DNA from: Globisporangium splendens
Taxonomy: Eukaryota; Oomycota; Peronosporomycetes; Pythiales; Pythiaceae
Direction of reading: 5' to 3'
Assembly (NCBI GenBank): GCA_006386115.1
Contig: VFIW01000127.1
Location: 1 to 64,000, forward strand
Length of the DNA stretch: 64,000 nucleotides
Shown: piece by piece, positions 5,769 to 57,266 of the stretch
Numbering within the stretch: position 1 is the stretch's first letter
How the letters are laid out: every line of letters starts with the position of its first letter
Translations under genes and position numbers: made by a program
The notes under the pieces: model-generated
Told to the model about the DNA's origin: nothing
Seen by the model: the letters and a program-made list of their open reading frames with translations, nothing else
The model's database searches: none

Positions 5769-7492
5769 ATCACATGCAACGTGGCTCTTTGTGTGTACCA
5801 CACACAGTCTTTTTCTGGCGCCTGACTGCTCCACCTCCGTTCGTCGTCTTCAAAATGGGTACCACTTGTGAACATGGGGGCCATCGCACACCGCAATATC
5901 ACAAGGGCCATCTGGGATCTCTTCCACAGATGTATACACCCATACCACTTCATCCGTTGTTGTGCAGCACAAGTCAACATCTCGTGACTTGCCAACGGAG
6001 ATCTTCATATTCATCCAGTCAATGCTAGGTTGATAACGCTTCAACCATGGCATTCCCAGGATGATGTCAAACTTGTCATCGAGGTCGAGTAAAATGAACT
6101 CGCCTTCACCTCGGAAATCTTCACACTTGATTGCCAAGCGCACCACGCGCTTCGGCATCTTCACAGTTGACCCATTTGCCAACCGGATAATCATTGTCTT
6201 CTCTTCGTTCGCATCAGGCACGAAGACACCATGCCTGACGATCACTTCATTTCGAACAAAGCTGTTCGACGCACCAGTGTCAACCAAAGCTCGTAGAGGC
6301 GTTGCAATACCGTCTACATGAACTTTGTGAACGATCAAACTTGACGTTCGACTGACACTCTTCTCACTCATAGTGGAAACTGCGTGTGCTTGATGCACAT
6401 AGGGGCCAGAGTCCTGTGTCTCCACAACGTCCACAGTCCTCTTTTCCGGGCCAGTAGGAGGCCCCGCCCCTACTATCCATTCCCGTTTTTTGGCCCAGGT
6501 GACCGCTCGAACCGACGACCGTAAGAACGATCGTGGTTGTTCGAACGAGCACCTTGTGTCGTTTGCCGACCTGGCAAAGACACCTTGCAGTTCCGAGCAA
6601 TGTGACCCGGCTTCCCGCAACGGAAACACTTCCCATCGTTGCGAGGACGCTCATTTCCAGGCGTGGAAATGTACGAGATGTCCATGGGCTCGGGACCATC
6701 ATGCACGACATTTGATTGCCGCATTGGTCTCGACGCAAACCCATGGAACTTTGCTTGCTTGATGCTGAACTCTTCTTGCATCGCGCGCTCAATGGCTTCA
6801 TCCAGCGTCTTGGGGTACTCGCGGAACAGTTGGTTCCGAATCGGACCATCGTTCAGACCCGTCATGAACGTCACGACTTGCGTCGGAACGTCAATCGGCT
6901 CGTCAACGATGCTCGATACCAAGTAACGAGCACGTTGTTCATACGAGTGAAGGTCGAAACGGCCTTGACGAAGCTTGAGGAACTCGGCGCGCGCACGGAA
7001 CTCACTCTGTGGAGGTTCAAACGCCTTCTTGAGTTTGGTCTTGAAGTGGTCGTAGCTGGGGAAGCAGTTTAGATCGGCTAAACGCTTGCCATACGCCCAG
7101 CTCTTCGCACGACCCGCAAGGTTGGACATCGCGAACAACACTTGCTGCGAAGGGTCTCGCAGTTGTCTTGCAGTGATGACTGCATCCAACTCGACGAACC
7201 ATCGTGAGAGAGGCTCGCTCTCTCCGCCGCGATACGAAGAGACGTCAAGCTTCAGTGGCACCGTCCTGAGTGAGGAAACAGGGGTTGCGACCTGCTTCAG
7301 GGAGGACATGATCTCGTGGTGCATGAAACTGACCACCGCACTCTTCTGGTCCTCCGGAGACGCCGACCGAAGCAGGCTGACCACGGCAGCCTCTCCGATG
7401 ACATCTCGCATGCGCTCAAGCGCCATCCACTCATGAGAAGACAGATGAGGGAAACCCTCAATAGTCAACTCGACAGTTTCCGGTACTGCTGG
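5769..7492 (-). pseudogene. Gypsy family B gag and protease (truncated, split by element A)
   Basis: Reads on the minus strand from 7492 down. The gag has a retrotransposon gag core (LSRWFVELDAVI, FREYPKTLDEAIERAMQEEF) and a CCHC zinc knuckle (CFRCGKPGHIARNC), ending at 6473. Pol follows in the -1 frame with an aspartic protease (ALVDTGASNSF, then ILGMPWLKRYQPSIDW). Pol is lost after about 5769, where the LINE insertion and an LTR fragment take over. The gag N-terminus lies on the far side of element A: removing 7493-16012 joins GPAV at 16013 to PETVELTIEG at 7492 in frame, with a start at 16039 (or 16117). Reverse transcriptase and integrase are missing, so this copy is dead. Confidence 0.83.
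6453..6491 (-). promoter_or_regulatory. -1 ribosomal frameshift signal, Gypsy B gag/pol
   Basis: On the minus strand the slippery heptamer A AAA AAC (6491-6485) sits in the gag reading phase (cca aaa aac), shortly before the gag TAG. About 10 bases later comes a hairpin at 6475-6453: AGTAGG and CCTACT pair, then GGC with GCC around a GGG loop, with one bulged base. The gag stop is beside or in the stem. Protease is encoded in the -1 frame as this requires. Confidence 0.75.
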
Positions 7493-7984
7493 TGTAACGG
7501 GGTTACACTGTAACATGGTTACGCACTTGTGTTGTGCCACACAACCAAACCGAACCATGAGGTTCGTCGTACTTGCTCGAACCTTCACGGTGGAGCCGGC
7601 AGCCAGTCTGAGTGACGGCGCCTCCGATTGGATATAATTGAACATGCATTTCATCCAATCACATAAGACAACTAGTGTTAGTCTTTCATAGCCACTCATT
7701 GCCCCATGGGGAGTAATTACACTTGAGATTGCTATTGTTCATAGTTACATAAAGATAATCCAGGTTGTTCTACAGTGGGCAACCTCCAACAGATAAACAG
7801 TTCCATTTTTACCGTTAACTGAGTCTTTGGTTATCGACGGTTACTCTATAGAGACCTATAGATAACCGATTGTTGCACTGCAGGAAGCAGGCAACCGCTC
7901 TCGGAACAGAGTCCTTGAGAGAAGCGTTGAATGCGCTTCCTCACACACGTACCGTGCTGCGTAACTCGGAAGTGTCCGGTTACA
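7493..7984 (+). repeat. 5' LTR of Gypsy A (family A LTR with a 42-base deletion)
   Basis: Starts TGTAACGGGG and ends CCGGTTACA. Compared with the 3' LTR it lacks about 42 bases after the first ACCGAACC; the missing stretch ends in a second ACCGAACC, so the deletion occurred between 8-base direct repeats. Confidence 0.92.
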
Positions 7985-8056
7985 ACTGGTAGCACTAGTA
8001 ATCAATCTACGACCCGGCAGAGGTGACTGCCTGAATCGCTTCCTCAAGGATTCATC

Positions 8057-9217
8057 ATGGCGTCAATTGACCCTGCGCAGTTCCCGCACCTCTCGGCTGA
8101 GCACCGGAGTGTGCTGACCCGAATGGCACAAGCGCTAGGCGACCAAGTCGCTCTAGACGTGCTCTCGGCGTCGCCGGAACAGCAAATCTTTCGACTCGAG
8201 CAGTTCGAGAACTTCTCGAACGCTCAGCGCCTCGAAGGAGAGCGAAGTGCGCAAGCACAAATGCAAGCCACCGCAAGCTGGACCGCAGAGATGCTGCGCT
8301 CAGCTGCTGAGTCGCGCGAAGCGCTCGAGCGAGTGGTTTCTGTGGTTGCTGGTGCAGCCACGTCTTTGTCGAGTGCGGTTTCTGCGCCTCAGACACCCGC
8401 GTCCCAAACTCCCCGCCCAAGAGCTGTCAAGATCGACGCTCCGAAATTCGATGGTGCGGATGGCGACAAGCTCATCCACTGGCTGCTCGCCGTGGAGCGT
8501 TGCGCCAAGGCTCAGCTCATCGACAGCAACGAGCAGATGGTGTCTTACGCCATCTCGAACCTGCGCGGTCGAGCGTCGGAATGGGCATTCTCGACGTTGC
8601 TCGCCGATGAGTGTGCATTCGACACGTGGGATATTTTCCGTGCGAAAATCACCGCCATGTATCAGCCTCCGAACAACGAAGTGCTGTTGCAAGGTCGTTT
8701 CTTCTCCTTGAAACAAGGGAAGCTCTCGCTGGAACGATACATCCAGGAGATGAGAAGCCTGTGCGCGGCGATCACGACCAGCCCTTTGCCTGAGTCTGTG
8801 AAAGTGCCTGCGTTTCTCAACGGACTCAACAGTGGACCAGCGCGTCAGGAGTTGTACCGACGCTTGCCGGCCACGATGGAAGATGCGATCCGCATTGCGC
8901 TCGTTGAGCAGCAATCGTTCAGAGTCAGCCGACCTGATTGGAACGCTGGCCGCCACAACGGTGCGCATCACAGCCATCGAGCAGTCACGAATGAGCGGCG
9001 CTTCCATGGTCCGACGCCAATGGATCTCAGTAGCGCCGAAGTGACCTGCTTTAATTGTGGCAAGCGAGGACACTATCAGTCGAAGTGTCCCGCTCCAAGG
9101 CAGTCCGCTCCTCGCACTGGAAATCAGGCGAGAGACTACCAACCGCCGCGCGGTAACCACGCTCATCGAGGTGGCAGATCCGCTGCGGCAAGAAAGGGAA
9201 ACGGAACGTCTCAGTAG
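8057..9217 (+). CDS. Gypsy A Gag polyprotein
   Basis: A 386-residue capsid/nucleocapsid precursor that packages the element RNA. The retrotransposon gag core spans about residues 120-290 (KFDGADGDKLIHWLLAVERC ... SLKQGKLSLERYIQEM). A CCHC zinc knuckle CFNCGKRGHYQSKC follows near residue 335, then a basic tail. Start ATG 8057 is about 70 bases after the primer-binding site. The frame is intact, unlike pol. Gag ends with TAG at 9215-9217 inside the frameshift hairpin. It is nearly identical by eye to the gag of A' on the other strand (25363-26523), which has the same length. Confidence 0.9.
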   Translation: MASIDPAQFPHLSAEHRSVLTRMAQALGDQVALDVLSASPEQQIFRLEQFENFSNAQRLEGERSAQAQMQATASWTAEMLRSAAESREALERVVSVVAGAATSLSSAVSAPQTPASQTPRPRAVKIDAPKFDGADGDKLIHWLLAVERCAKAQLIDSNEQMVSYAISNLRGRASEWAFSTLLADECAFDTWDIFRAKITAMYQPPNNEVLLQGRFFSLKQGKLSLERYIQEMRSLCAAITTSPLPESVKVPAFLNGLNSGPARQELYRRLPATMEDAIRIALVEQQSFRVSRPDWNAGRHNGAHHSHRAVTNERRFHGPTPMDLSSAEVTCFNCGKRGHYQSKCPAPRQSAPRTGNQARDYQPPRGNHAHRGGRSAAARKGNGTSQ

Positions 9218-9240: not shown

Positions 9241-12200
9241 GACTCTATAGCTTCGGCATCGCCGACTACTAGAGTCGTGCAGATGGGAAGCTTAGTCCCA
9301 GGAGCTCTTGGCAACAAGGCTCCGAGTGAGATGTTGGTATATAGCGCCGATGTGAAGGGCTGTGAGAAGAAAATGACGGTTCTTGTTGACTGCGGTGCGT
9401 CACAGAACTTCGTCTCGAAGGCAGCTCTGGAACAGAGTCTGCAAGCGTATGACCGACTTGTCCACAGTGGCAAGCGCGAGAAGATGATCGTGCGTCTGGC
9501 CGATGGGTCGACAGTACACACTGAAGGGGTTCAAGTCGAACTCTCTTTCAGTTTTTGCGACTTTGTCTGCAAAGAAACGTTCGTGGTACTAGCGATGGGG
9601 TCGAAGTGCGACCTCATCCTAGGGATGCCTTGGCTGGCGAAACATCAGCCTTGGATCGATTGGCGAGCACGCACAATCGGGAGCTCCACCCCTTCCTCTG
9701 ATGAAGAGCGAAGGTTGCGGGAAAATTTCCACGCTATGGATGCGAGCTTTGAACACGCTGTGGCAGGGAGCCCAGCAGGAAGACATGCGGCGGCAGCGAG
9801 CCCCGCTCAAAACACTCACGCTGTGGCAGGGAGCCCAGCTAGAAGATGCGCTGAGGCAGGGAGCCCAGCAAAGAGATCAACTGCGGCAGGTAGCCCAGTT
9901 TTTGCGGAAGCGCCAGAAAGTCCAGACGTGGACACTGGTGCGCAAGTGTGCGGCTCCAGAGCACCCGAGCCAGCCCCCGCAAGTGACAGCGACAGTACAG
10001 GTGTACACGCGTCAACCAGCTCGTGCCACCCCGACGGTGCAGTACTGGAGCTCAGAACCGCGAGGTCGCGTGTTCGCATCAACCGACGAGGGCGACGCAA
10101 GTTGTCAGCTCGCGAGAGAGACAGTGCATTGGCATCTGTTGCTGAGGAAACGGCCGCCTCGCGTATGATTGCCCCATCTCTCAATGCAGCTGCAACTTCG
10201 CTGCGCGCCTTCGACAGGATCTCGGATCCGTCGATAGATCGCGCTCACGTTGACGTGGCGCTCAGACGCGCGACACGCAGTCCGGAAGCAAACGCATCAG
10301 ACGAAGTGTTCTTCGCTGAATTTGCGGCGCTCCATGAGCTGCCGAGTACCGCTGAGGCGATTGTATCCCTCGAAGAAATGAGCTATGAACTCTTTCTTAC
10401 GGATCTAGAGCGTGACCAGATCCGCGAGATCGTCGTTCCGACTGCGTTTCCGCGTGGCGAACTATGCACCTCGTCCACTGCGGATGAGAGTGTTTTGGAG
10501 CCAGACAAACAGAAACGGTTTGCTGCTCAGGATTGGGACGCCGTGAAAGGCAGTCCATACTTTGACTTATTGTGGGAGTTCAAAGATGTGTTTCCCGACA
10601 AAGCGCCAAGTGCCCTGCCCGTTGATCGTGGCGTACGGCACGAGATTGACCTCGAGCCCTGGAGCAAATATTGCGTGACCAGACAATGGCCGCTGCCCCG
10701 CGAGCAGGTTGAGGCAATCGACGAGTTCTTCGCGAAACGAGCCCTCGCCGGTCATGTGAGAGAAAGCAAGTCTTCGCATAGCTCACCCACGTTTTGTGTG
10801 TGGAAAGCGACTGGTGGCTGGCGCATTGTTCACGCTTTCAACAAGCTGAACGCCGCCACCATTCCGGCACAAACGCCGATCCCAAGGAAGGATGTCTTGA
10901 TCGACTCCATGGGCGGCTCGACAGTGTTCTCCGCACTGGATCTGATGGATGGGTTCTATCAGATCCTCATGTGAGAGAGTGACGTTCCCTTGACGGCAGT
11001 AAGCACACCCAGCGGGATGCTGTGGGAGTGGCTCGTTATGCCGCAAGGTTTGAGGAATGCACCAGCGACGTTCAATCGTCTGGTAACGCATCTTCTGCGT
11101 CCTCATCGTGCGTATGCACCGAGCTATTTCGACGGCATCTTCGTGCACAGTCGTGCCGAAGGAGATCTCAGTGCCGTTGACGTGCACAAGAGACATTTGC
11201 GCTCAGTGTTGCAGTGCTTACGAGACAACAGTCTGTATTGCAACCTGAAGAAATGCATCTTTGGCGCCTCAGAGATACCGATCCTGGGCTGCTATGTTGG
11301 CAAAGCTGGAGTCCGCGCGGACCCAGAGAAGATCAAGGCGATCGCCGACTGGCCGATCCCAAAGAATGTCAAGGACTTGCGCAAGTGGCTTGGCTTGGCA
11401 AATTACTTGCACAAGTACAGCCACAACTATGCGGCAAGAGTCCGTCCGCTCACGCATCTCTTGAAAAAGGATGTGGAGTGGGACTGGACAAACGATGTCA
11501 TGAATGCATTCATTGACGTGAAGGAGTCGCTTGTTCGCGCTCCTGTCCTGGCGTTGCCGGACCACACGAAAGCCTTCAGTGTCGTGTGCGATGCCAGCGA
11601 TTTTGCAATCGGCTGTGCACTGATGCAGAAGGATGATGACGGCCATGAGCGCGTCGTATCATACCAAAGCAGACTGCTTAAGGCAGCTGAAAAGAATTAC
11701 CCTGTGCACGACAAGGAGCTGCTTGCGATCAAGTACGCCCTCTTGAAGTTCAGGGTCCACCTTTTGGGTGCGACACTGTTCGTTGTGTACACGGATCACG
11801 CGTCCTTGCGGACCGCGATTAATTCCCCCCATTTATCGCAGCGAATGGCGCGATGGCTTGCTTTCTTCTCCGAGTTCAACTTTCGGGTCGAATACAAGCC
11901 GGGAAAGGAAAATGTTCTGGCGGACGCGCTCTCGCGCCGTCCAGATTACGAGTCGAGCGTCGACGACAGCTCTGACGCCCTGTGTTTGGAGCGCACTCCT
12001 GATCTCATGCATCTGAGCATCAGTCGAGTGCAAACAAAGCTCAAGGACAATATTCAGTCGCTTTATCCAAAGGACGATGAATGTCGCTTGTTGATTGCTC
12101 ACTTTGACGGCTCGTCGAAAGAGTCATTGCCTGCCAAACTCGAGTCAAAGCTTGCTCGGTTTAGTTACCACGACGGGTTGTTGTGGCATCGACTGTCCAA

Positions 12201-14318
12201 CTTCGATTACCCGCGTGTGTATGTACCGCATGACCAGGATCTGAAACTTTCGATCCTTCATGAGTTTCACGATACACCAGCGAGTGGGCATCTCGGGCGT
12301 GAAAAGACCTTCTTGCAAGTGCCCAATGTATTTTGGCAGCCATACCAGTACAAATGGGTGGCCAATTATGTACGCTCATGCGAGCAGTGCCAGCGCGTGA
12401 AGCCTGCGGGCAAGAACAAAGCGCCGCTGCATCCGCTGCCGATTCCGCAAGACTGCTGGAAGTCGATCAGCATGGATTTCGTCTTCGGTTTCCCGGAAGA
12501 CAAGACGCGCAACACAGGCGTCGTCGTGTTCGTCGACCGACTGAGCAAAACGGTGCACGTTGCACCCGTGCGCAAGCATGTCACTGCGCAAGAGACGGCG
12601 TGCCTATTTTTAGAGCACGTGTCCCGCTATCACGGCTTGCCCGAGTCTATTGTATCAGACCGGGACCCGCGTTTTACCGCTGCCTTTTGGCGCGAACTCT
12701 TTCGCCTGCTCGGCACAGATCTGGCGTTGTCCACTGCCGATCACCCCGAGACAGACGGGCAAACCGAGCGCGTGAACCGTGTCGTCGAGGATATTCTTCG
12801 CAGCATCGCTGTCGATCATCCCCGCGACTGGAGCCGCTGGCTGCCGTACGCCGAGTTTGCTATAAATAGCAGCGAGCACGCCTCTACGGCCGTGACTCCG
12901 TTCTATTTTAACTCCGCTGCGGCACCCGCGCGTACCCGCCACTCTGTTCGAGGGCGTCGAACGTTCTGCGGTGGGAGGGCAACTCGCTGCGCTCGATGCG
13001 AGCGCGCGATCTCCGTCACCGGACGTGGCGTCGACCGCTCACGTGGACGCGCGCGATGCGCCGCCTGTGCGTTCGCACTTCGAATCTGTCACGGTCTTAC
13101 CGGACGGCACGAGTTCCACACTTGCAGAGAAAAACACGGTACCGAGTTACGGTACTCGTGTCCCTATCGATGGCTCTTCCACGGTACTGAGTTACGGTAC
13201 TCGTGTCCCTAAAGATGGATCACCCACGGTACCGAGTTACGGTACTCGTGCTAAAAATAGCCAGTCTCAGACGGAATCAGGCGACTGCTCATGCGAGCGT
13301 CAGCCACGAATGGAAGGACGCGCGGTGTCACACACCGGCGCAGAAATAGATCTCTCTGCAGCACGCGCTGCGAGAGCAACGAAAAAGCAAGACAAAGCCG
13401 TCGCGGCAGCGCGGCAATTTGTCGATGAGCGCGCAGCATTGTTGCGTCGCGTACGCGACCAACTAGCTGCTGCGCAAGACAAGCAAAAGCTCTACGCCGA
13501 TAAATCGGGTAGAAAGAACAAACAAACGTTTTGTGTGGGTGATAAAGTGCTTTTAAGCATTAAAAACCTACCAAACGATGCAGTCACAACGCTCCCCAGC
13601 GGGAGTAAGTTGTTGCCACGATTCATCGGGCCATACACTGTTGTGGAGAAGATTGGAGACTTGAATTACAAGCTCGATCTCCCAACGAGAATGGCAACGC
13701 ACCCCGTGTTCTACGTGGGTTTGCTTAAGCGCTACCATGACGCTACTGTGGATTTTTATCCCAGTCCGGGAGCAACGTCGGTCTCATCAGGGGGCTCAGA
13801 CGCCGCCCATCGAGACACGAGCGCGTTGTGCCTCTCCCAAAGCGTCTTCACTCGCGGAGCGTACCTCGCGTGGAAGCGCTTCCCGCGGACATGGTACTCC
13901 TCCAGCCTCTGACGAGCTTCCTTCAGCTCCGTCTCAAGCGCTGTCACCCTCTGCTCCAACAGCGAGGTTTCGTCCAGATATTGCTGGCGAAGGGTACGGA
14001 CGGCTTGCTGTAGCGCCCCCAAAGACGATGCGTTCGCGTGAACCATCTCAACCACCGCATCTGGTGCAACCACCGATGCTGAAGCGAAGTAGGGCGCCAC
14101 CTGTCCCGCTGATTGACAAGCAGGGACAGCGCCACTACCATGTTGAGCGCCTGCTGCGTGTGCAGCGGCGGAAGGGGAACACCCACTACCTTGTGAAGTG
14201 GCGTGGGTACGATGTGTCGCAGAGCTCGTGGGAGCCTGCTGAGCGTCTTCGCGAAGACGTCCCGGATCTTGTTGACGCCTTTGAGGCGCAACTGAGGGAC
14301 TGTCATTCGCGCGAGTAA
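9203..14318 (+). pseudogene. Gypsy A Pol: protease, reverse transcriptase, RNase H, integrase, chromodomain (inactivated)
   Basis: Expressed by -1 frameshift from gag. Domains in order: aspartic protease (LVDCGASQNF, LILGMPWLAKH), a spacer rich in AGSPA repeats, reverse transcriptase (about 10620-11250), RNase H (VVCDASDFAIGCAL, YTDHASLR), integrase with H2C2 finger and D, D, E (SMDFVFGF, IVSDRDPRFT, ETDGQTERVNR), and a C-terminal chromodomain (HYLVKWRGYDVSQSSWEP). Lesions against A': TGA at 10972-10974 in place of CGA; one-base insertions near 12914 and near 13772, each shifting the frame; and the catalytic YFDD motif reads YFDG (GGC at 11134-11136). Any one would block transposition. Confidence 0.9.
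13135..13255 (+). repeat. 45-base in-frame tandem repeat in the integrase tail
   Basis: Two full units plus a partial third, each encoding a 15-residue unit like TVPSYGTRVPKDGSP. Each unit contains the short inverted motif GGTAC-GAGTTAC-GGTAC. The same array with slightly different units is in A' at about 21335-21460. Confidence 0.8.
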
Positions 14319-15288
14319 TTTGTCGCCTGTTACCAGCGCGACCACCCGCTCGCAGAGGCGTGCCACCGCCCTGCTTGGAGCGAAACAGACGAACACGGTC
14401 AACTGCAAATTGCATGCGTTGACTGCGTTGCGCTGTCGGATCGGTAGACACTGTGCGAGTGCTACCTCCCTTAATTTTATTGATGCACGACATGAAGTCG
14501 GCATCGTACTCTTCTTCCGTCTCTCCAACAAAGAGGACGACTGGGATCGGGTGAATACGCAATTCCCCATTTTCACCCCGCAATCGCTTTTCACGCCAAT
14601 TTTTAAATTGAGCGTCATAGTCCCGCGCACAAAGTCTGGCTCTCGCGAGCAGATTCGATGCGGTCTTGCCAGCCGGCCATAGTTCTGGCGGCGGCATTTC
14701 GGGCAGTGAGTATTTGAGCTCATCGTGAACGATGGCTCGCACTCCTGCCTCTTCGTTTGTAATGAGGACTTCGTGCTTCCTCTTACGATTGTTGACAGCC
14801 TCAACGGCGTCATTTTCCTCCTTCGTCCGATACATCGAGACGTCAGCGGATGGATCTCGCTCGAGCTCGTGGAGATAAGCGGCGTGTCGCTCGCTTTGCA
14901 ACTCCTCGTACTCGACCCACTCGTCGATGGAGCCGAGCTTCACGGTGAGCGCTCCCTCGTCTTCAAGCGAGCTCCCGTCATTGTCAACGACGAGGAATTC
15001 CTCAGTCGCTTCCTCCTCTTCCAAAGCACGCGCGAACAACGGCTTCACGGAAGGGAGATCTCCGAATCGCAACTCACTGCTTATAGCAGGAGCGCTATCA
15101 GATGTGAGAGCAGACCTGCCGTCGCTCTCCGCAGGCACGTCGACCGCATCCGCGGTGACCGTCGTTCGTCTTGCGCTCGACGCGACCTCTCTGTCTTCCT
15201 CGCGCTTGCGCAGAGTTTCGACGAGAGTGCCGACGCCTTCCCCTTTTTGTCGCGCGAGCTTCTCGCGGACAGCTTTGTTGGTAGCCAT
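13756..15288 (-). CDS. antisense ORF of Gypsy A, convergent with and overlapping pol
   Basis: A 510-residue ORF on the strand opposite pol, starting at ATG 15288, 184 bases inside the 3' LTR. I do not recognise the family. The first ~323 residues (outside pol) are acidic and charged, with islands shared with the A' copy: MATNK.VREK at the start, VKLGSI.EWVEYEEL, HELER.PSADVS.YRT, HPIPV.L and QRSQRMQFAV. The last ~187 residues lie antisense to the pol end and chromodomain, and form a Ser/Ala-rich linker and then a coiled coil (LRQQYLDETSLLEQRVTALE and on). Length is 510 versus 511 in A' although the unique part is only about half identical, which points to selection on the protein. A role in regulation by analogy with antisense genes of other retroelements is pure inference. 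An earlier in-frame ATG at 15330 exists but is not shared with A'. Confidence 0.72.
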   Translation of the reverse strand: MATNKAVREKLARQKGEGVGTLVETLRKREEDREVASSARRTTVTADAVDVPAESDGRSALTSDSAPAISSELRFGDLPSVKPLFARALEEEEATEEFLVVDNDGSSLEDEGALTVKLGSIDEWVEYEELQSERHAAYLHELERDPSADVSMYRTKEENDAVEAVNNRKRKHEVLITNEEAGVRAIVHDELKYSLPEMPPPELWPAGKTASNLLARARLCARDYDAQFKNWREKRLRGENGELRIHPIPVVLFVGETEEEYDADFMSCINKIKGGSTRTVSTDPTAQRSQRMQFAVDRVRLFRSKQGGGTPLRAGGRAGNRRQITRANDSPSVAPQRRQQDPGRLREDAQQAPTSSATHRTHATSQGSGCSPSAAAHAAGAQHGSGAVPACQSAGQVAPYFASASVVAPDAVVEMVHANASSLGALQQAVRTLRQQYLDETSLLEQRVTALETELKEARQRLEEYHVRGKRFHARYAPRVKTLWERHNALVSRWAASEPPDETDVAPGLG

Positions 15289-15472
15289 GATACTCACGTG
15301 CGCGAGCACAGTGACTATATGTGCCAACACTCGGTGAAATTAACGCACGCGTCGCCGCTGTGCTCTTTCCCGAGGAATACACGAATGTTCCCCTTTCTCG
15401 GCGCACACGCGCGAGATCCACACGTGTCTCACACCGACCCTTCGAGTGTTTCGCACTTTAAGTGGGGGGTGG

Positions 15473-16007
15473 TGTAACGGGGTTACACTGTAACATGGTT
15501 ACGCACTTGTGTTGTGCCACACAACCAAACCGAACCTTGCAGTACGTAGAGTACGCGCAACAAGTTTAAGACCGAACCATGAGGTTCGTCGTACTTGCTC
15601 GAACCTTCACGGTGGAGCCGGCAGCCAGTCTGAGTGACGGCGCCTCCGATTGGATATAATTGAACATGCATTTCATCCAATCACATAAGACAACTAGCGT
15701 TAGTCTTTCATAGCCACTCATTGCCCCATGGGGAGTAATTACACTTGAGATTGCTATTGTTCATAGTTACATAAAGATAATCCAGGTTGTCCTACAGAGG
15801 GCAACCTCCAACAAATAAACAGTTCCATTTTTACCGTTAACTAAAGCCTTTGGTTATCGACGGTTACTCTATAGAGACCTATAGGTAACCGATTGTTGCA
15901 CTGCAGGAAGCAGGCAACCGCTCTCGGAACAGAGTCCTTGAGAGAAGCGTTGCATACGCTTCCTCACACACGTACCGTGCTGCGTAACTCGGAAGTGTTC
16001 GGTTACA
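15473..16007 (+). repeat. 3' LTR of Gypsy A
   Basis: 535 bases, TGTAACGGGG to TTCGGTTACA, preceded by the polypurine tract and followed by target duplication GCTGG. Contains the 42 bases missing from the 5' LTR. Confidence 0.95.
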
Positions 16008-16012
16008 GCTGG

Positions 16013-16158
16013 ACCGAGTGGGGTTCCTGTAACATCCATGTTCCAAACAAGGATGCTCGCAGGGTCTTGGACAGGAATGCGCGACGTGCTTAAAGCCACG
16101 TCGTCAAACCTCTTCACTTCACTGGGTCGTTGGAAGGACCGCTCGAAGTGCTACCAGG
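16013..16158 (-). pseudogene. Gypsy B 5' leader and gag N-terminus
   Basis: On the minus strand, directly after the LTR (two-base gap), TGGTAGCACTT at 16156-16146 is the primer-binding site, the same as in Gypsy A and A'. The gag start is ATG 16039 or in-frame ATG 16117. The coding sequence breaks at 16013, where element A is inserted, and resumes at 7492. Confidence 0.8.
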
Positions 16159-16808
16159 TGTAAGAGGGCGCTGTTCACAACAGTCCCTCAAACACGGCAC
16201 ACACGCTTGTGCCAGAGGAAGCGATCTCCCGACTTGGAGGGAGGAAGAAGACTTGAGTACTTGGAGGAAAATTTGCAACTGAATTGAAAATGGTTATGGT
16301 TCCTGTCGCTACTTACTAATGAACCCCAAGGGATCCTACAGGTTTTATAACTAAAACCTAAATATACACAATAAAACCTATGAATCTGATATATAAAACC
16401 TTGGGTACACTGAGGTTGAACCTACGGGATCTTCTAGAGGCTTGAACTTCAAGTCTTATTTAAAATCCCTGCAAAGTGATTGGCTCGCGCAACTCACTCC
16501 AGGTGGCAGAGACACGTCGGTCTCGTCGCCAGTCCAGTTTCCCAAGCAGGAACCATCACTCAGTACTTGATTAGTACATGGATGTCATTGCTCAGTACTG
16601 ATTAGTACATGAGAACAACATTCTGCACTGATCAGCACAGAGAACACTCGTGAAGTCATCGAATGACGTCACACGTGCATGTGGGGACTGTATTACCGTA
16701 ATCCCTTTGTTATTTGTGTCTCCACAATGCACGCTGAAGGTGGTGTGTGCCACACTAGATCTGGGAACAGATCCACCTTCATGTAATGGCTGGTTGTGGC
16801 CCATTACA
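16159..16808 (-). repeat. 5' LTR of Gypsy B (650-base family C/B LTR)
   Basis: Plus-strand sequence runs TGTAAGAGGG to GCCCATTACA; on the element strand it starts TGTAATGGGCC. Nearly the same LTR is at 54262-54911 and, inverted, at 57837-58486. Its outer edge interrupts Copia RNase H at 16809. Confidence 0.9.
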
Positions 16809-18602
16809 GCATCAGCGTAATCTGCTAAGAGCCATTTGCTTTTGAATTGCCCGAGGTTCTCCTTTCCGCATAATGTAATACCAAGGTTCGTCGTGCCCTT
16901 GAGGCATTTGGGACCACGTTTAACTGCATTCCAGTGCTCTTTGCCTGGGTTGTCAACAAATTGACTCACTTCTCGGAGGAAATATGCATGACCAGGTCGG
17001 GTGCTCAACATTAGACACATGAAGCTGCAAACAGCCCCTCGATATGGGATGCCATTCGTCGTGGCCTTTTCATCCTGTGTCTATGGGCACATGCCCTTCG
17101 TAGGGATTGTCCCTTTTCAACCGGCATTGTAACTGAGTGAGTTCCAAGACGATTGAACCGATGAGGACGGTTACGGTATACTTCTCTTGATGATGAAAAT
17201 ACCGTGTGCTTCTATTGCGGACAATAGACCAACCGAGCAGGTAGTGTACCTTCCCTAAACCTGACATTGTGAACTCTTTGTTCAAGGTAGATTTGATTGC
17301 CTGTGGAGGTTGCACAGATAGACAGATGATCAATAGGTCATCAACGTACACTGCAATGCAGCATGCTTGAGCGCACACAGTACCAACAAAAACACATTGA
17401 TCTTTAATGAGTTTTTAAAACCCAAGGTGTGTTGAGAAAGGTTCGAAGAGTGACACCATATGCAGGGTGCTAGTTTAAGACCGTACAGACTTTTGAGAAG
17501 TTTGCAGACCAAGTGCTCTTGTCCTGGTCTGACAAATCCTTCTGGTTGTTCCATATACATTTCGTCATCAAGTTTCTCATTTAGAAAGGCTGTCTTGACA
17601 TCCATCTGATGGATTTCGTAGTTGAGTAGTGCAGCTATAGTTAGAAGTAAGCGGAGTGCTTCCACACGAATGACAGGGGCCAAAATTTCGTTGTAGCCAA
17701 TGCCGTGCCGTTGTAAGAAACCTTTTATACTAGACGTGCTTTGTACCGATCTAGTTTGCCATCTCCTCTTTATTTCTTTGTCCAAACCCACCTGCACTTC
17801 AGTGCTTTTCGATTTGGGGGAAGAATGACAAGCGTCCAAATTTCATTTTCGATCAAGGAGCTGCGTTCACTTTCCATTGCAGCTGCTCCAATGTCGTTGT
17901 GAAATGTGTTTAGTGCTTTCTCTCGGAAGTCCTCATAGCATTCGTACAGGGCGGACTTCCTTTTGATCACTTATGAGAACATGAAACGAGTCGCGTCGTC
18001 GATGAAAGCGAGAAAATATCGACACCCAGATAATGTTGGAGTGGGTAATGTCCCATTCATGTCAGAGTGTATCTTTTGTAATAGATATTTTGCACGTTGA
18101 ACAGGTTGTTTATTAAACGGTAGTCGATGAGACTTCGCATATACACATGAAGGGCATATTTTCAAGCTGCTGGGGTCCACGGTCCGCAGGTCCACTCCTT
18201 GAATGGTCTTGTACCTAAGCATTGTCTGCATAACGCCAAAGTTAGGATGGTCCATTCTTTTATGCAACAACAAAAAGTCTTTTAACTCACCTGGGGTAGC
18301 CGCGTGGGCGAGCTCTTGTTTGTTGGTGTTGGCCACGAACTGACACAGGTCCGAAGTTGACGTCGTCGAGGCAGCGATTGTGCAGCTGTTCGCGTACTTG
18401 AGGCAGCACTTGCCAGACTTTTCGAAGGTGACCTTGTACAAATCGTCAGCGGCTTGAGATACCGAGAAGAGATTGAACTTGACGTTAGGTGCGTAGAGCA
18501 TGTTTTCGAGGGTGGTCGTTTTCTCCGCTCTCTTCTTGTCCTTGACTTCGATGTCGACTTGGCCAATTCCTTTGATTGGAATTTTGTGATTCCCTCCAAC
18601 CG
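16809..18602 (-). pseudogene. Copia/Ty1 pol remnant: integrase, reverse transcriptase, part of RNase H
   Basis: Minus strand. From the right: the end of the protease/GAG-pre-integrase region (FNLFSVSQAA, LLLHKRMDHPNFG), the zinc-finger and start of integrase (HSDMNG, FLAFIDDATRF), then an internal deletion that joins integrase directly to the pre-RT linker (SLIENEIWTLV). Next comes Copia reverse transcriptase (GFLQRHGIGYNEI, FLNEKLDDEMYMEQPEGF, YVDDLLI) in several frames with stops, then RNase H (CTRP-like STRPGHAYFLREVSQF, NPGKEHWNAVKR). It ends at 16808, where the Gypsy B LTR cuts in. The upstream part continues at 27136-28512 on the far side of element A'. Confidence 0.88.
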
Positions 18603-19136
18603 TGTAACCGGACACTTCCGAGTTACGCAGCACGGTACGTGTGTGAGGAAGCGTATTCAACGCTTCTCTCAAGGACTCCGTTCCGAGAGCGGTTGCCTGC
18701 TTCCTGCAGTGCAACAATCGGTTACCTATAGGTCTCTATAGAGTAACCGTCGATAACCAAAGACTCAGTTAACGGTAAAAATGGAACTGTTTATTTGTTG
18801 GAGGTTGCCCTCTGTAGGACAACCTGGATTATCTTTATGTAACTATGAACAATAGCAATCTCAAGTGTAATTACTCCCCATGGGGCAATGAGTGGCTATG
18901 AAAGACTAACGCTAGTTGTCTTATGTGATTGGATGAAATGCATGTTCAATTATGTCCAATCGGAGGCGCCGTCACTCAGACTGGCTGCCGGCTCCACCGT
19001 GAAGGTTCGAGCAAGTACGACGAACCTCATGGTTCGGTCTTAAACTTGTTGCGCGTACTCTACGTACCGCAAGGTTCGGTTTGGTTGTGTGGCACAACAC
19101 AAGTGCGTAACCATGTTACAGTGTAACCCCGTTACA
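18603..19136 (-). repeat. 3' LTR of Gypsy A'
   Basis: 534 bases; plus strand begins TGTAACCGGACACTTCC and ends CCCCGTTACA. Nearly identical to the 26596 copy and to the solo LTR at 60627. Confidence 0.94.
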
Positions 19137-19307
19137 CCACCCCCCACTTAAAGTGCGAAACACTCGAAGGGTCGGTGTGAGAAACGTGTGGTGGTCACGC
19201 TACGACTCACGAAGTCGTGGTCAGAATTTATCGTGAGAGGCACAGCGAACACGCGTGCAAAGCTCTCCGAGAATCGTCGTAAAATCACAAGTGTGGACGC
19301 ACACGTG

Positions 19308-20843
19308 ATGGCGACAAACAAATCGGTGCGCGAGAAGATCGCCCGATGCGCGAGCGGCCCTGCAGAAGGACTCGTTCAAAGATTGCAAAAGCTCGACGCT
19401 GAAAAGCGCGAGACGGCGAGCGCAAAACAACGCGCTGCCGCTGCGACCACGACTGCCACAGTAGACGTGAGCATGAGCGACGTCGAGTCGACTCAACCGA
19501 AGGCTGCTCCTGACTGTGTCAGTGAGCTACAATTTGGCGACCTCCCTGCCATCATGCCGATGAGCAGGACAAGCGACGCCGAAGAAGACACGGCAGTCGA
19601 CTACCAAGAGTACTCGCCCGAAGAAGGGGAGGAAGGGGAAGACATCACAGTGAAGCTCGGCTCCATCGGCGAGTGGGTCGAGTACGAGGAGTTGCATTAC
19701 GGGAGCGGTAGCCCCGAACTGCACGAGTTGGAACGGAATCCCTCGGCAGACGTCTCGATTTATCGGACGGATGAAGAAAAAGACGTCGCAAAGACTGTCA
19801 AAGAAAGAGGGAAGGAGGAGGTCATCATTACCAATAATGAGACCGGACTGGAACCACCGCGAAAAGGTTCCGTCCATTATTCGCTTCCCATTATGCCGCC
19901 GCCAAGTTAATGGCCGACAGCAAAAACCCCGGCAAATTTACTTGCACAGGCGCGGGTTCCACTCGAGAGGTATGACTCCGAGTTCGCACGATGGCGCGAA
20001 GCCGATCTGCGAGGACGTGATGGGGCACTGCGCGTGCACCCGATCCCGGTTATCCTTTACGAAGATGAGACCGAGGATCAATATGAAACCGCGTTCTTGG
20101 CATCAAGAACCGGTGTGAAACGCTTTGGCACTGCGCGTATATTGGCCACCGATCCTGGGGCACAACGTAGCCAGCGCATGCAATTCGCTGTGCAGCGCGT
20201 ACAAAAGTACCGCGAAGCGATCAAGACTGTTGACCGTGCTCGTTCGAGTCACGTCGTTAACAAGCGGCAGATGGACGAGTCCCACTCGCCACCAACGCAC
20301 GCTCAAAAGCGGCGACCATGTCGGGAACGTCCTCGAGGAGGCGCTCAGCAGGCTCCCACGAGCTCTGCGACACATCGTACCCACGCCACTTCACAAGGTA
20401 GTGGGTGTTCCCCTTACGCCGCTGCACACGCAGCAGGCGCTCAACATGGTAGTGGCGCTGTCCCTGCTTGTCAATCAGCGGGACAGGTGGCGCCCTACTT
20501 CGCTTCAGCATCGGTGGTTGCACCAGATGCGATGGTTCAGATGGTTCACGCGAACGCATCGTCTTTGGGGGCGCTACAGCAAGCCGTCCGTACCCTTCGC
20601 CAGCAATATCTGGACGAAACCTCGCTGTTGAAGCAGAGGGTGACAGCGCTTGAGACGGAGCTGAAGGAAGCTCGTCAGATGCTGGAGGAGTACCATGTCC
20701 GCGGGAAGCACTTCCACGCGAGGTACGCTCCGCGAGTGAAGACGCTTTGGGAGAGGCACAACGCGCTCGTGTCTCGATGGGCGGCGTCTGAGCCCCCTGA
20801 TGAGACCGACGTTCTCCCGGACTGGGATAAAAATCCACAGTAG
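19308..20843 (+). CDS. antisense ORF of Gypsy A', overlapping pol (one internal stop)
   Basis: Counterpart of the antisense ORF of element A: 512 codons from ATG 19308, with a single TAA at 19908-19910 where A has a Leu codon (PPPELWPA in A, PPPS then stop then WPTA here). The start region (MATNKSVREKIAR) and the islands VKLGSIGEWVEYEEL, ERNPSADVSIYRT and HPIPVILYEDETE match A, while much of the rest of residues 1-316 differs by substitutions and in-frame indels. Residues after about 317 overlap pol (20257-20843) and are almost identical to A, ending in the same coiled coil. The start lies 172 bases from the LTR edge. Function unknown. Confidence 0.7.
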
Positions 20844-23800: not shown

Positions 23801-25377
23801 CTATGTGGAGACTTGCTTTCTCTCACATGACCGGCGAGGGCTCGTTTCGCGAAGAACTCGTCGATTGCCTCAACCTGCTCGCGGGGCAGCGGCCATTGTC
23901 TGGTCACGCAATATTTGCTCCAGGGCTCGAGGTCAATCTCGTGCCGTACGCCACGATCAACGGGCAGGGCACTTGGCACTTTGTCGGGAAACACATCTTT
24001 GAACTCCCACAATAAGTCAAAGTATGGACTGCCTTTCACGGCGTCCCAATCCTGAGCAGCAAACCGTTTCTGTTTGTCTGGCTCCAAAACACTCTCATCC
24101 GCAGTGGACGAGGTGCATAGTTCGCCACGCGGAAACGCAGTGGAACGACGATCTCGCGGATCTGGTCACGCTCTAGATCCGTAAGAAAGAGCTCATAGCT
24201 CATTTCTTCGAGGGATACAATCGCCTCAGCGGTACTCGGCAGCTCATGGAGCGCCGCAAATTCAGCGAAGAACACTTCGTCTGATGCGTTTGCTTCCGGA
24301 CTGCGTGTCGCGCGTCTGAGCGCCACGTCAACGTGAGCGCGATCTATCGACGGATCCGAGATCCTGTCGAAGGCGCGCAGCGAAGTTGCAGCTGCATTGA
24401 GAGATGGGGCAATCATATGCGAGGCGGCCGTTTCCTCAGCAACAGATGCCAATGCACTGTCTCTCTCGCGAGCTGACAACTTGCGTCGCCCTCGTCGGTT
24501 GATGCGAACACGCGACCTCGCGGTTCTGAGCTCCAGTACTGCACCGTCAGGGTGGTACGAGCTGGCTGACGCGTGTACACCTGTACTGTCGCTGTCACTT
24601 GCGGGGGCTGGCTCGGGTGCTCTGGAGCCGCACACTTGCGCACCAGTGTCCACGTCTGGACTTTCTGGCGCTTCCGCACAAACTGGGCTACCTGCCGCAG
24701 TTGATCTCTTTGCTGGGCTCCCTGCCTCAGCGCATCTTCTAGCTGGGCTCCCTGCCACAGCGTGAGTGTTTGAAGCGGGGCTCGCTGCCGCCGCATGTCT
24801 TCTGCTGGGCTCCCTGCCACAGCGTGTTCAAAGCTCGCATCCATTGCGTGGAAATTTTCCCGCAACCTTCGCTCTTCATCAGAGGAAGGGGTGGAGCTTC
24901 CGATTGTGCGTGCTCGCCAATCGATCCAAGGCTGATGTTTCGCCAGCCAAGGCATCCCTAGGATGAGGTCGTACTTCGGCCCCATCGCTAGTACCACGAA
25001 CGTTTCTTTGCAGACAAAGTCGCAAAAACTGAAAGAGAGTTCGACTTGAACCCCTTCAGTGTGTACTGTCGACCCATCGGCCAGACGTACGATCATCTTC
25101 TCGCGCTTGCCACTGTGGACAAGTCGCTCATACGCTTGCAGACTCTGTTCCAGAGCTGCCTTCGAGACGAAGTTCTGTGACGCACCGCAGTCAACAAGAA
25201 CCGTCATTTTCTTCTCATAGCCCTTCACATCGGCGCTATATACCAACATCTCACTCGGAGCCTTGTTGCCAAGAGCTCCTGGGACTAAGCTTCCCATCTG
25301 CACGACTCTAGTAGTCGGCGACGCCGAAGCTATAGAGTCTGTCTCAGTAGAGCGTCCCGCTTCTACTGAGACATTCC
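20257..25377 (-). pseudogene. Gypsy A' Pol: large intact RT-RNase H-integrase-chromodomain ORF, spacer broken by two 1-base deletions
   Basis: Protease (LVDCGASQNF) is read from the frameshift site to about 24810, where a missing base relative to A (after GSPA) shifts the frame. A second missing base near 24147 shifts it again, after which the frame is open from 24087 to 20257 for 1276 residues. That ORF holds reverse transcriptase with an intact YFDDIF motif, RNase H, H2C2 integrase with D, D, E, the 15-residue repeat tail and a chromodomain (LVKWRGYDVSQSSWEP). Both lesions lie in the spacer between protease and RT, so this copy decayed more recently or less than A. It is the better reference for the family. 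Confidence 0.88.
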
Positions 25378-26523: not shown

Positions 26524-26595
26524 GATGAATCCTTGAGGAAGCGATTCAGGCAGTCACCTCTGCCGGCTCGTAGATTGACTACGAGTGCTACCAGT

Positions 26596-54911: not shown

Positions 54912-54987
54912 TCATCCCCTCCTTAAAGTCACAAGTACCTTGCGTACTTTTGCAGACCTTTCGGAGCAGTTCACTTTGCAATTGGCA

Positions 54988-56055
54988 ATGAAGCGACCAA
55001 GTGACCAAGTGAACCGAGAAGAAAGTCCGTCGTCCAAGCGACAGCGGACAGCTCCAGAACTCTTCGACATTTCTCCCATTCTGAAGAAGAAGGGGGAGCT
55101 CGAGTTCTACAAGGAGCGGTTCTTCAGTTGGCGTCGGATCAGCGATCGCGATGATCCGAACCAACACATCGCAGCCCAGAGAGACTCATGGCGAACATTT
55201 GTTCGTCTTGAGAACGAGAACAAAATGGAGCGTCTTCTTCGTCGTGGCAACGCTCGTGCCGAAAGAAGAACTCCCGCTGACGACAGAGCGAACCGTAGCT
55301 CTGGTCGTCGTAGTGTCCCCCCTGGTGACGCTACAAGCAGTTCTCATAGCTGCGGACCACGTCGGGAACATCAGACTCCAATGTCTGACGAGGCTCCCAC
55401 GTGTCCGAGCTCGGTGGATATCCACGCCACCGAACTCTGTAGAAGCGTTGATGGTTCAACTGCTTCTTTTCTCGACGATGAGTCGGTCGATCTTCATGAT
55501 CAACAATCGACTCAACCACCCAGCGATGCTCTCCCTGAGAGTCTAATAACGGGGGTGGGGCTGAACGAGAAAACGATTGAGCGACTCTGGAAGTGGAAGA
55601 GTGCTCACCGTGGGCAAATCGAGGCTTTGCAGCAGCGTTGTTCGACGCTTGAGGAACGCTGCGAGAGTCTCGAGAACCTTGTCGCCGATCACGAGTCGAA
55701 GATCGACGTCCTGACAGAAGGTTCTGCCCAGTGTTCGGCTTTGGAGTCCCGTTTCGAGGAACGGTTCCAACAGGTTCAGGACGAACTTGTTCGACTCCAG
55801 AAGAACGAGAAGTCTCGTGAGTTGGCTCACGATCGCCTGTTGCGCTCTGTGGGAGAGGCAGGTTCGGCTCTCGAGGTACTTCGTGGTGAGTACCATTCTC
55901 GCCTTCAAGCGTTGGAGACAATGAAGGACCAATCCTTCGACGTCCTGCAACTCCTGTACGCCGAGAAGAATCTTCAGAGCGATGAGCTGTTTGCTCTTCG
56001 CAATCAAGTGGAGAAGCTTCACGATCAGCTCGATCGTTTGCGGAAGATCTCGTAG
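54988..56055 (+). CDS. antisense ORF of Gypsy C1, largely overlapping pol
   Basis: A 355-residue intact ORF starting 77 bases from the 3' LTR and running towards and over the end of pol on the other strand (overlap 55331-56055, 725 bases). Residues 2-20 resemble a nuclear localisation signal (KRPSD...SSKRQR). Residues 1-114 are unique to this strand; after that the sequence is antisense to the pol tail and chromodomain. Residues about 195-355 are a long coiled coil (IEALQQRCSTLEERCESLEN, then LFALRNQVEKLHDQLDRLRK). It has the same position, orientation and codon phase against pol as in A and A', although family C pol is quite different. No stop or frameshift, whereas the pol around it is broken. 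Function unknown. Confidence 0.72.
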   Translation: MKRPSDQVNREESPSSKRQRTAPELFDISPILKKKGELEFYKERFFSWRRISDRDDPNQHIAAQRDSWRTFVRLENENKMERLLRRGNARAERRTPADDRANRSSGRRSVPPGDATSSSHSCGPRREHQTPMSDEAPTCPSSVDIHATELCRSVDGSTASFLDDESVDLHDQQSTQPPSDALPESLITGVGLNEKTIERLWKWKSAHRGQIEALQQRCSTLEERCESLENLVADHESKIDVLTEGSAQCSALESRFEERFQQVQDELVRLQKNEKSRELAHDRLLRSVGEAGSALEVLRGEYHSRLQALETMKDQSFDVLQLLYAEKNLQSDELFALRNQVEKLHDQLDRLRKIS

Positions 56056-57266
56056 GATCCGCAGATCCACTTGGAAGGTAAGGCTTTAGTCTACCCACAT
56101 AAAATGTCGGGTGTAGACGCATGCGTGTAGGTATGTCTAGTGTGTAGGCATCACCATTGCATTTCACTACCTTGAACGGTCCGATGAACCTTGGCAGAAG
56201 TTTCGAACTCCCCAAGTTGGACACTGCATGTTCAGGCAGGTTCGCCGTGCTAAGTAATACAAGATCATTGATCTTATAAAACTTGCTTGTTCTTCCTTCC
56301 GCTCTTGTCTGCTTGTTCCTTTTGCAGATCCTGAGCCTTCGTGATTGCGTCTCGAACAAACCTCACAACGGCTTGTCTCCTCACAACAAAGTCATCGACT
56401 TGCTGCTCTTCACGACTTGTTAGGCCGTCGAGGGGTTTCATCGAGTCAAAATTGGCTTTCAACTCGGAAGCAGCATTCAGGTCGTAAGACGACTTCGGCT
56501 TGTTACCATGAGCCGGAGTCCCTCCCCCACTTAAGGTAGAGACCTCACCCATTATGGAAGCAGGCACTCGAGGGTGAATGCCATAGTTCACATAAAATGG
56601 AGAGTGACCCGTCGAGACATGCGTGGAGTTGTTCAACGCAAACTCGGCAAGAGGGAGAAACTCACTCCACTCTTTGAAAGACGTTGCGTAACTGCGCAAC
56701 ACGTCTTCGAGGACGCGATTCACTCGCTCTGTTTGACCGTCCGTTTCAGGGTGTGCCGCTGTTGACATGGGCAACTTGGTGTCCAGAAGTCCGAACAGTG
56801 CACGCCAGAACTTGGACGTGAAACGGGTGTCACGGTCAGACACGATCTCGACCGGTAGTCTGTGTAGACGGAATACGACGTCTACAAAGACCTTGGCAGT
56901 CTTTTCCGCTGAGATCTTGTCCGAAACAGGCGCAAGATGGACCATCTTGCTGAATCGGTCCACAAACACAAGGATGCCATTGCGTCCGTGTTTGTCTCGA
57001 GGAAGTCCGAATATGAAATCCACACTCACAGACTTCCAACTGTCCGATGGGACAGCCAATGAACGAAGTGGTGCCTGTGCGGAACCAGAAGGTTTCGCTC
57101 GTTGGCAGATCTCGCAAGTCCTCACATACTTGCGCACCCACTTGTACATGTGTGGCCAGTAGTAATCCCGGGAAAGACTGAGAAACGTTTTCTCACGTCC
57201 GAGATGGCCACCCGAAGGACTGTCATGGTACTCATACAAGAGTCGATAACGCAGACTGCGCGGCAC
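55331..57266 (-). pseudogene. Gypsy C1 integrase and chromodomain
   Basis: Minus strand. H2C2 finger (HDSPSGGHLGREKTF, CEICQRAKPSG), catalytic D, D, E (VDFIFGLP, IVSDRDTRFT, ETDGQTERVNR), then a frameshift near 56280 (GRKNKQVL to KINDLVLLSTANLP), the tail (LLPRFIGPFKVV) and a C-terminal chromodomain (YRVRWRGYPPSSDTWEPRQT). Lacks everything upstream of integrase. Confidence 0.88.

What the first reader, a model, noticed from the sequence alone, without database searches (positions are those of the whole stretch)
13756..15288. Long antisense gene in Gypsy retrotransposons, convergent with and overlapping pol
Element A carries a 510-codon ORF on the strand opposite gag-pol. It starts 184 bases inside the 3' LTR and ends 563 bases inside pol, opposite the chromodomain. 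About 970 bases lie outside pol, so it is not a mere shadow. The A' copy keeps it at 511 residues and the unrelated-by-pol family C copy at 355 residues. Each has a charged N-terminal part and a C-terminal coiled coil, and family C adds an NLS-like start. Antisense genes reading from the 3' LTR are known in HTLV-1 (HBZ) and in some plant Tat/Ogre elements; I know of none described in oomycete Gypsy elements. A regulatory role is inference.
Basis: partly seen in the sequence, partly recalled or inferred. Interest (0 to 1): 0.88.

Follow-up and report, generated by a model that had tools for sequence, protein, structure and literature searches.

The report
Selected antisense gene in oomycete retrotransposons
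Three related families of jumping genes in a plant-pathogenic water mould carry, on the strand opposite their replication genes, an extra protein gene that natural selection preserves and that is partly written through the back of the pol gene; what the protein does is not yet known.

Summary
The window lies in Globisporangium splendens. The antisense ORF at 13756-15288(-) is real and belongs to a protein-coding gene family. Relatives run from 100% down to 38% identity (34 proteins). Outside pol, dN/dS is 0.275-0.30 between A and A' and 0.13 in the core (p 6e-12 and 3e-14); it is the most constrained of six frames. Family C (355 aa) passes the same test. A third family, D, was found here (536 aa). 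In all three the antisense gene starts outside pol, passes the chromodomain and ends in pol's integrase-chromodomain linker, in the same codon phase. Constraint is divided: pol over the chromodomain, the antisense gene over the linker, where it encodes a coiled coil. C and D share an N-terminal domain; A's is different. A and A' have near-identical flanks but differ at 37% of bases across the antisense cassette. No Pfam, PDB or fold relative was found. Antisense accessory ORFs are known in plant Retand/Tat elements; my searches showed none in oomycetes. Expression was not tested. A nuclear regulatory role is a best guess.

The parts
7493..7989 (+). 5' LTR of element A (end approximate), preceded by GCTGG at 7488-7492, a possible target-site duplication
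   Evidence: LTR pair 7549-7989 / 15571-16012; ends and GCTGG read by eye
15473..16007 (+). 3' LTR of element A, preceded by a purine-rich tract and followed by GCTGG at 16008-16012
8057..9217 (+). gag of element A (Retrotrans_gag, zinc knuckle)
9277..14318 (+). pol of element A, broken into several frames in this copy (9277-10974, 10990-13212, 12971-13912, 13737-14318): protease, RT, RNase H, integrase, SH3, chromodomain
14136..14288 (+). chromodomain of pol A; the antisense frame opposite it shows no purifying selection
   Evidence: (pol omega 0.16, antisense 2.3)
13756..15288 (-). antisense gene of element A; 510 codons here, C-terminus altered by a one-base length difference; 514 codons in 29 of 40 copies
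14374..14946 (-). conserved core of the antisense protein (about residues 115-305), outside pol
   Evidence: alignment; omega 0.13; ordered 195-306
13798..14064 (-). C-terminal coiled coil of the antisense protein (residues 409-497 of the 514-aa form), encoded opposite pol's integrase-chromodomain linker
   Evidence: long helix, pLDDT above 80 over most of it; antisense omega 0.05 over coil and tail
19308..20843 (+). antisense gene of element A' (pol on minus strand); one in-frame stop in this copy
54988..56055 (+). antisense gene of the family C element, 355 codons, NLS-like start and long coiled coil
55331..57266 (-). 3' part of pol of family C (two frames in this copy), chromodomain at 55334-55528
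54971..54984 (+). sequence resembling the oomycete initiator, 4-17 nt upstream of the family C antisense ATG and similar in a diverged subgroup; weak evidence
   Evidence: 2 mismatches; 10 matches in the window against 7.7 expected; consensus recalled

Best explanation
The ORF is a genuine accessory gene of a group of related chromodomain Gypsy elements, transcribed toward gag-pol from a promoter between the 3' LTR and its ATG or in the 3' LTR (inferred). Its product has a conserved N-terminal domain of one of two kinds with no detected relation (A-type; C/D-type) and a C-terminal coiled coil (alignment and predicted structure for A and C; read from sequence for D). The two genes share DNA by dividing it: the coil is written through pol's sequence-tolerant integrase-chromodomain linker, while the stretch opposite the chromodomain is a free linker of the antisense protein (shown by dN/dS in both frames). 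Most likely the protein forms oligomers through the coil, enters the nucleus and regulates the element's own expression or silencing, as HBZ does for HTLV-1 (recalled) and as is proposed for plant Retand antisense proteins (inferred). My odds: real selected protein gene about 0.97; translated from an antisense transcript about 0.9; nuclear regulator of the element about 0.4.
For: 34 homologous proteins at 100-38% identity, the full-length ones mostly 457-514 aa. 87 invariant columns among 8 aligned members, 51 of them in the part outside pol. Unique-part omega, A vs A', 0.275 (LRT 47) and core 0.13 (LRT 58); A vs C175 core 0.23 (LRT 29). Lowest omega and largest test value of six frames in 5 of 5 tests. 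Family C unique part 0.17 (LRT 32). Family D unique part 0.39-0.47 (LRT 16-24). Overlap, A vs C175 on one DNA alignment: chromodomain stretch pol 0.16, antisense 2.3; coil and tail antisense 0.048 (p 1.5e-8), pol above 1 with 15% aa identity. Same split in C and in D, where one of four pairs is weak. Same codon phase in all three (antisense position 2 opposite pol position 3; worked out from coordinates and used). Long C-terminal helix predicted in A and C. A basic cluster (two K/R, then a third at once or after one residue) in 8 of 8 A-type and 19 of 20 C-type members; RKKRR in D.
Against: No transcript, promoter or peptide evidence was available. Less diverged A' pairs give weaker constraint (omega 0.53, p 0.012; 0.645, p 0.085). 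Over the whole overlap, the less diverged A-type pairs give antisense omega near 1 (0.93-1.35, not significant); the division shows only when the overlap is split and diverged pairs are used. An independent protein alignment of the pol linker, A vs C175, gave pol omega 0.12 (p 2e-4) at 34% identity and a saturated distance, against above 1 on the antisense-frame DNA alignment; and C175's pol frame has one stop in that stretch. Polymorphism among near-identical A copies shows only slight depletion outside pol (80 nonsynonymous, 48 synonymous, 3 stops; expected 100, 45, 5) and none in the overlap (75, 28, 6; expected 60, 26, 4). No domain with a known function was found. Basic clusters are common in charged proteins and are weak support for nuclear entry. 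Convergent transcription could make dsRNA against the element.
Confidence: 0.6

Rival explanations
1. Real antisense protein with a structural or integration role: the coiled-coil protein assembles with Gag or integrase/chromodomain particles rather than regulating expression.
For: Long coiled coils in A and C; a chromodomain pol lies opposite the gene in the loci of the three families where I looked.
Against: No similarity to Gag or to known assembly factors; a late structural protein would gain nothing obvious from a separate antisense promoter.
Confidence: 0.2
2. Real antisense protein that counters host silencing of the element (anti-silencing factor).
For: The gene is kept despite the dsRNA risk of convergent transcription; cassette divergence between A and A' between near-identical flanks would fit an arms race with the host.
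Against: Omega is below 1 in the unique part, with no sign of positive selection outside the overlap, where phase inflates it; the silencing link is inference.
Confidence: 0.17
3. Shadow ORF: an open frame opposite pol and the 3' untranslated region kept by base composition and chance.
For: Within family A, copies are mostly 98-99% identical, so openness there says little; another antisense frame of 285 aa is also open in most A copies; polymorphism within A is near neutral.
Against: Only the antisense frame lacks stops across A, A', C175 and C outside pol, the window's A' copy apart; it is the most constrained frame in 5 of 5 tests; 0 of 2000 neutral simulations stay open.
Confidence: 0.02
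4. The functional product is the antisense RNA (copy-number control or siRNA source), the protein being incidental.
For: Antisense non-coding transcripts of LTR elements are known (passages in PMC7264820).
Against: Selection acts on amino acids in the unique part and in the coil.
Confidence: 0.04
5. A host gene recently captured in antisense orientation.
For: Capture by retroelements is known in general (recalled).
Against: The loci examined are element-borne and the metagenome homologs have no known context; present in three pol families with the same overlap and phase, so an old part of the elements.
Confidence: 0.03

Closest known systems
Plant Retand/Tat antisense ORFs (Grande gene23, RIRE2, Retand; TRP28, PF04195), PMC11963269 and PMC7264820 (passages read)
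   [quoted passage not shown] function unknown; regulatory role proposed; nuclear product in Grande as reported there
   Different: No TRP28 match; the elements here carry a chromodomain; the gene runs 476-725 nt into pol with constraint divided between the frames; the word 'overlap' has 0 occurrences in the main text of either plant paper
HTLV-1 HBZ (recalled; also mentioned in passages of PMC11963269)
   Same: Antisense gene read from the 3' end of a retroelement; coiled-coil/zipper-type C-terminus
   Different: No bZIP match seen; ATG lies outside the LTR; HBZ is spliced (recalled), this ORF is one exon as far as seen
Segregated overlaps in HIV-1 (tat/rev, env/rev), PMC9119678 (abstract and passages read)
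   Same: Functional segments of one protein overlap tolerant segments of the other
   Different: Those are same-strand overlaps; here the overlap is antisense, tail to tail, in a retrotransposon and repeated in three families
Oomycete chromodomain Gypsy group Chronos, PMC5348765 (abstract and passages read)
   Same: Oomycete Gypsy elements with a C-terminal chromodomain in pol
   Different: Chronos has a second, archaeal-type RNase H, not detected in pol A; the word 'antisense' does not occur in that paper's main text
Opposite-strand gene in the Sola1-1 DNA transposon of the brown alga Ectocarpus, PMC12477816 (passages read)
   Same: A gene on the strand opposite the transposition gene in a stramenopile mobile element
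   Different: A DNA transposon; the product is a ParB-like and DNA-methyltransferase protein

Membership tests
Plant Retand/Tat antisense ORF (TRP28 type) | Antisense ORF between pol and 3' LTR of a Gypsy element | tested here: met
   A. C: (purine tract and LTR start read by eye). D: antisense to pol and extending past its end; its LTR was not mapped
Plant Retand/Tat antisense ORF (TRP28 type) | TRP28 domain (PF04195) | tested here: not met
   absent for A (all listed families seen), the window C protein (first table) and D; for the other 19 C-type rows the list showed 25 of 55 families
Plant Retand/Tat antisense ORF (TRP28 type) | Carried by a non-chromovirus element without chromodomain | tested here: not met
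   chromodomain in pol A, C (by motif) and D
HBZ-like retroviral antisense gene | bZIP domain | tested here: inconclusive
   no bZIP family listed for A or D; C list truncated; coiled coil predicted
HBZ-like retroviral antisense gene | Antisense transcript started in the 3' LTR | not testable with these tools
   no RNA data; ATG about 184 nt outside the LTR in A
Chronos (oomycete Gypsy) | Dual RNase H including an archaeal/plant-type domain | tested here: not met
   only RT_RNaseH families in window pol A at E up to 1; one copy of one family examined
Chronos (oomycete Gypsy) | Chromodomain at the end of pol | tested here: met
Functional overlapping gene pair | Purifying selection on both products, each in its own frame | tested here: met
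   simple one-frame codon models, no joint two-frame model

The most novel reading that the evidence does not exclude
A group of oomycete chromodomain Gypsy elements has kept an antisense accessory gene in a fixed architecture: N-terminal domains of at least two kinds, a tolerant linker opposite the chromodomain, and a coiled coil written through pol's integrase-chromodomain linker, in the same codon phase in all three families found. The cassette is exchanged between elements as a unit. The pol linker is then in effect sequence space ruled by the antisense gene. This would be an antisense overlap between two proteins of a retroelement whose domains interleave, repeated in three families.
Probability: 0.65. 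Interest if true: 0.82.

Novelty: new variant of a known kind. Interest (0 to 1): 0.74.

Why it matters
Antisense accessory genes of LTR retrotransposons are known mainly from plants, with untested roles. A second group in oomycetes, with proteins that do not match the plant TRP28 domain, suggests that such a gene serves a recurrent need of Gypsy elements. The split of constraint between the two strands gives a clean natural case for how a pair of antisense genes can share DNA, and it would explain why pol's linker varies so much. Because A and A' differ almost only in this cassette, they form a natural experiment on its role.

Tried and rejected
Chance ORF: rejected by six-frame openness, simulation and frame-control omega.

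Homology of A-type with C-type: hhalign probability 29%, in the linker and coil only; A with D 0.6%; not claimed. C with D: probability 94%, E 9e-8, but part of that alignment lies opposite homologous chromodomains, so only the N-terminal part is counted; BLASTP of that part with one C-type member is weak on its own (E 0.05).

Rows dropped: alignment A1 had 12 proteins; P0028, P0029, P0033 and P0034 (recombinant, shifted or partial gene models, by eye) were left out of A2. In one search, 2 of 40 copies with indels were left out. In one search, 2 of 10 fetched C copies (L056, L063; ORF 278 and 68 aa) were left out. The 12 A' copies with DNA (L041-L052) were chosen among those without stops, and the three D loci for long pol frames, so they say nothing on intactness. 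In the dN/dS tests I used a few pairs per family, not all copies.
Full report
WHERE AND WHAT. The window is part of a 53.3-Mb assembly of 195 contigs. Protein records identical or nearly identical to the antisense product are annotated as hypothetical proteins of Globisporangium splendens. Element A has LTRs at about 7493-7989 and 15473-16007, with GCTGG on both outer sides (read by eye). It carries gag, then pol with protease, RT, RNase H, integrase, SH3 and chromodomain. The antisense ORF runs from an ATG at 15288 to a stop at 13756. The ATG is about 184 nt outside the 3' LTR.

COPIES. A DNA search gave 40 scored copies in the genome, a lower bound by the tool's own note. I read all 40. Against the window copy, 37 of 39 others show a single gap base and two (L021, L028) show more; the change lies near the 3' end of the ORF. 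29 of 40 read exactly 514 aa from the same ATG, and 32 of 40 keep 508-514 codons. In the same 40 loci the last 2 kb of pol is open in 21. The copies were picked by similarity to the antisense ORF, so this comparison is biased in its favour. The window's A' copy has one in-frame stop; 15 of 21 A'-type rows have none. For family C, 90 of 114 listed matches lack a stop. For family D, 19 of the 26 rows that reach from residue 1 or 2 to 536 lack a stop (81 rows in all, the rest partial).

IT IS A PROTEIN GENE. A-type relatives fall to 38% identity (34 proteins, some of them fragments or fused models); an alignment of 8 of them has 87 invariant columns, 51 of them in the part outside pol. Pairwise codon-model dN/dS, with a likelihood-ratio test against 1, gives for the part outside pol 0.275 (A vs A', p 6e-12) and 0.127 for residues 115-305 (p 3e-14). 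A vs C175 gives 0.088 over the 241 codons compared and 0.228 in the core. These pairs are saturated at synonymous sites, so the values are rough, but the direction is not in doubt. Less diverged A' pairs give 0.53 (p 0.012) and 0.645 (p 0.085). As a control I ran six frames on five alignments: the antisense frame has the lowest omega and the largest test value in 5 of 5, and one sense frame shows a weaker shadow at 0.45-0.54. Only the antisense frame is free of stops in A, A', C175 and C-type sequences outside pol, the window's own A' copy (one stop) apart. Polymorphism within A is close to neutral, with slight depletion outside pol (80 nonsynonymous, 48 synonymous, 3 stops; expected 100, 45, 5) and none in the overlap (75, 28, 6; expected 60, 26, 4), as expected of young copies that decay after insertion.

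THREE FAMILIES. Family C's 355-aa antisense protein has 82 database relatives, down to 43% identity. A search for chromodomains in the genome (150 of 697 candidates scored) pointed to another family, D. In 3 of 3 fetched loci, chosen for long pol frames, a 565-codon open frame (536 aa from its ATG) lies antisense and overlaps pol by 476 nt. C and D share an N-terminal domain (hhalign probability 94%, E 9e-8; part of that alignment reflects the homologous chromodomains on the other strand, and BLASTP of the domain alone is weak, E 0.05). A-type shows no such relation. The pols are related: integrase A vs C 54% identity; pol tails A vs D 37%, C vs D 54% and 69% in two stretches. The C175 locus, the most diverged A-type member I found in the genome (38% identity), has the same arrangement.

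THE OVERLAP IS DIVIDED BETWEEN THE GENES. In all three families antisense codon position 2 lies opposite pol position 3 (worked out from coordinates). By chance three families would share one of three phases in one case of nine, so this is mild evidence for common descent. On one DNA alignment read in both frames, A vs C175: over the chromodomain pol omega is 0.16 (p 3e-7) and antisense 2.3; over the coil and tail antisense omega is 0.048 (p 1.5e-8), while pol is above 1 with 15% amino-acid identity and one stop in C175. The size of values far above 1 is an artefact of phase and saturation; the switch between regions is the result. Two results speak for caution: over the undivided overlap the less diverged A-type pairs give antisense omega 0.93-1.35, not significant; and a separate protein alignment of the pol linker gave pol omega 0.12 at 34% identity and a saturated distance. 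Family C, window copy vs L065: unique part 0.17 (p 2e-8); chromodomain pol 0.32 (p 0.006) and antisense 1.8 (not significant); linker and coil antisense 0.34 (p 5e-6), pol 2.2. Family D, L071 vs four copies: chromodomain pol 0.18-0.24, antisense 1.1-3.9; linker and coil antisense 0.17-0.42, pol 0.68-2.3; one of the four (L077) is weak in the coil (p 0.087). So each gene places its tolerant stretch opposite the other's constrained one.

CASSETTE EXCHANGE. Along the alignment of A and the window's A', identity is 95-100% in 150-nt windows up to about 14230, except two lower ones (94% at 12280, 89% at 13030); it is 56-73% from 14230 to 15429 (720 of 1145 aligned bases, 63%); and it is 99% again over 15430-15879 in the 3' LTR. 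L053 joins an A'-like start to an A-like remainder inside the antisense gene at about codon 128 (read by eye from the sequence printed). Template switching during reverse transcription is the likely cause (inference).

STRUCTURE AND LIKELY WORKING. Predicted models are weak overall (mean pLDDT 58 and 73.5). They show an ordered stretch at residues 195-306 and a long helix at 409-497 in A, and a helical domain at 29-93 with a long helix at 184-354 in C. No usable PDB match was found by sequence (mostly coiled coils for C) or by fold. A basic cluster is present in 8 of 8 A-type and 19 of 20 C-type members, in 16 of these 20 within the first 32 residues. From this I infer an oligomeric, probably nuclear protein. 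A regulatory role on the element is the most likely of several options, by analogy with HBZ (recalled) and with what is proposed for plant antisense ORFs (PMC11963269, PMC7264820, passages read). None of the functional steps is shown.

KNOWN OR NEW. [quoted passage not shown] Ten literature searches were made; bear on this. Their listings (titles and starts of abstracts) showed no oomycete case; (antisense protein, LTR retrotransposon, oomycete) returned 0 papers. The library holds only open-licence papers. PMC5348765 on oomycete Gypsy elements does not use the word antisense in its main text. In PMC3522703 on Phytophthora infestans small RNAs I read passages only; they report sense and antisense small RNAs over Gypsy elements and no antisense ORF.

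Noticed in passing
window 43654-47955 (+): A 1433-codon ORF with CHAT, NACHT/AAA and TPR matches in one protein: a STAND-type, caspase-like domain architecture in an oomycete.
   Followed up: partly
window 14230-15430 against 18603-27130: A and A' are 95-100% identical in nearly all windows except over the antisense cassette, where 37% of aligned bases differ; why gag-pol and LTRs are so alike while the cassette is old is not settled.
   Followed up: partly
L054 1-6301 (G000:C175): gag-pol on the minus strand lies next to the antisense end of another copy, as if two elements share an LTR in tandem.
   Followed up: no
window 13135-13250: A 45-nt period repeat inside pol upstream of the SH3 part (GTRVPKDGSPTVLSY units) that differs in length between A and A'.
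   Followed up: no
window 16158-16813, 54261-54916, 57837-58487: Three copies of a 650-nt stretch at 95-96% identity outside the A element, one inverted.
   Followed up: no
window 49283-50731 (-), 52668-53690 (-), 38674-39663 (-): Host-type genes: Rad17-like with a RanBP zinc finger, M1 aminopeptidase, PfkB kinase.
   Followed up: no
P0003, P0007: Public gene models put the antisense protein and a Gag domain in one record, perhaps across neighbouring elements in opposite orientation.
   Followed up: no
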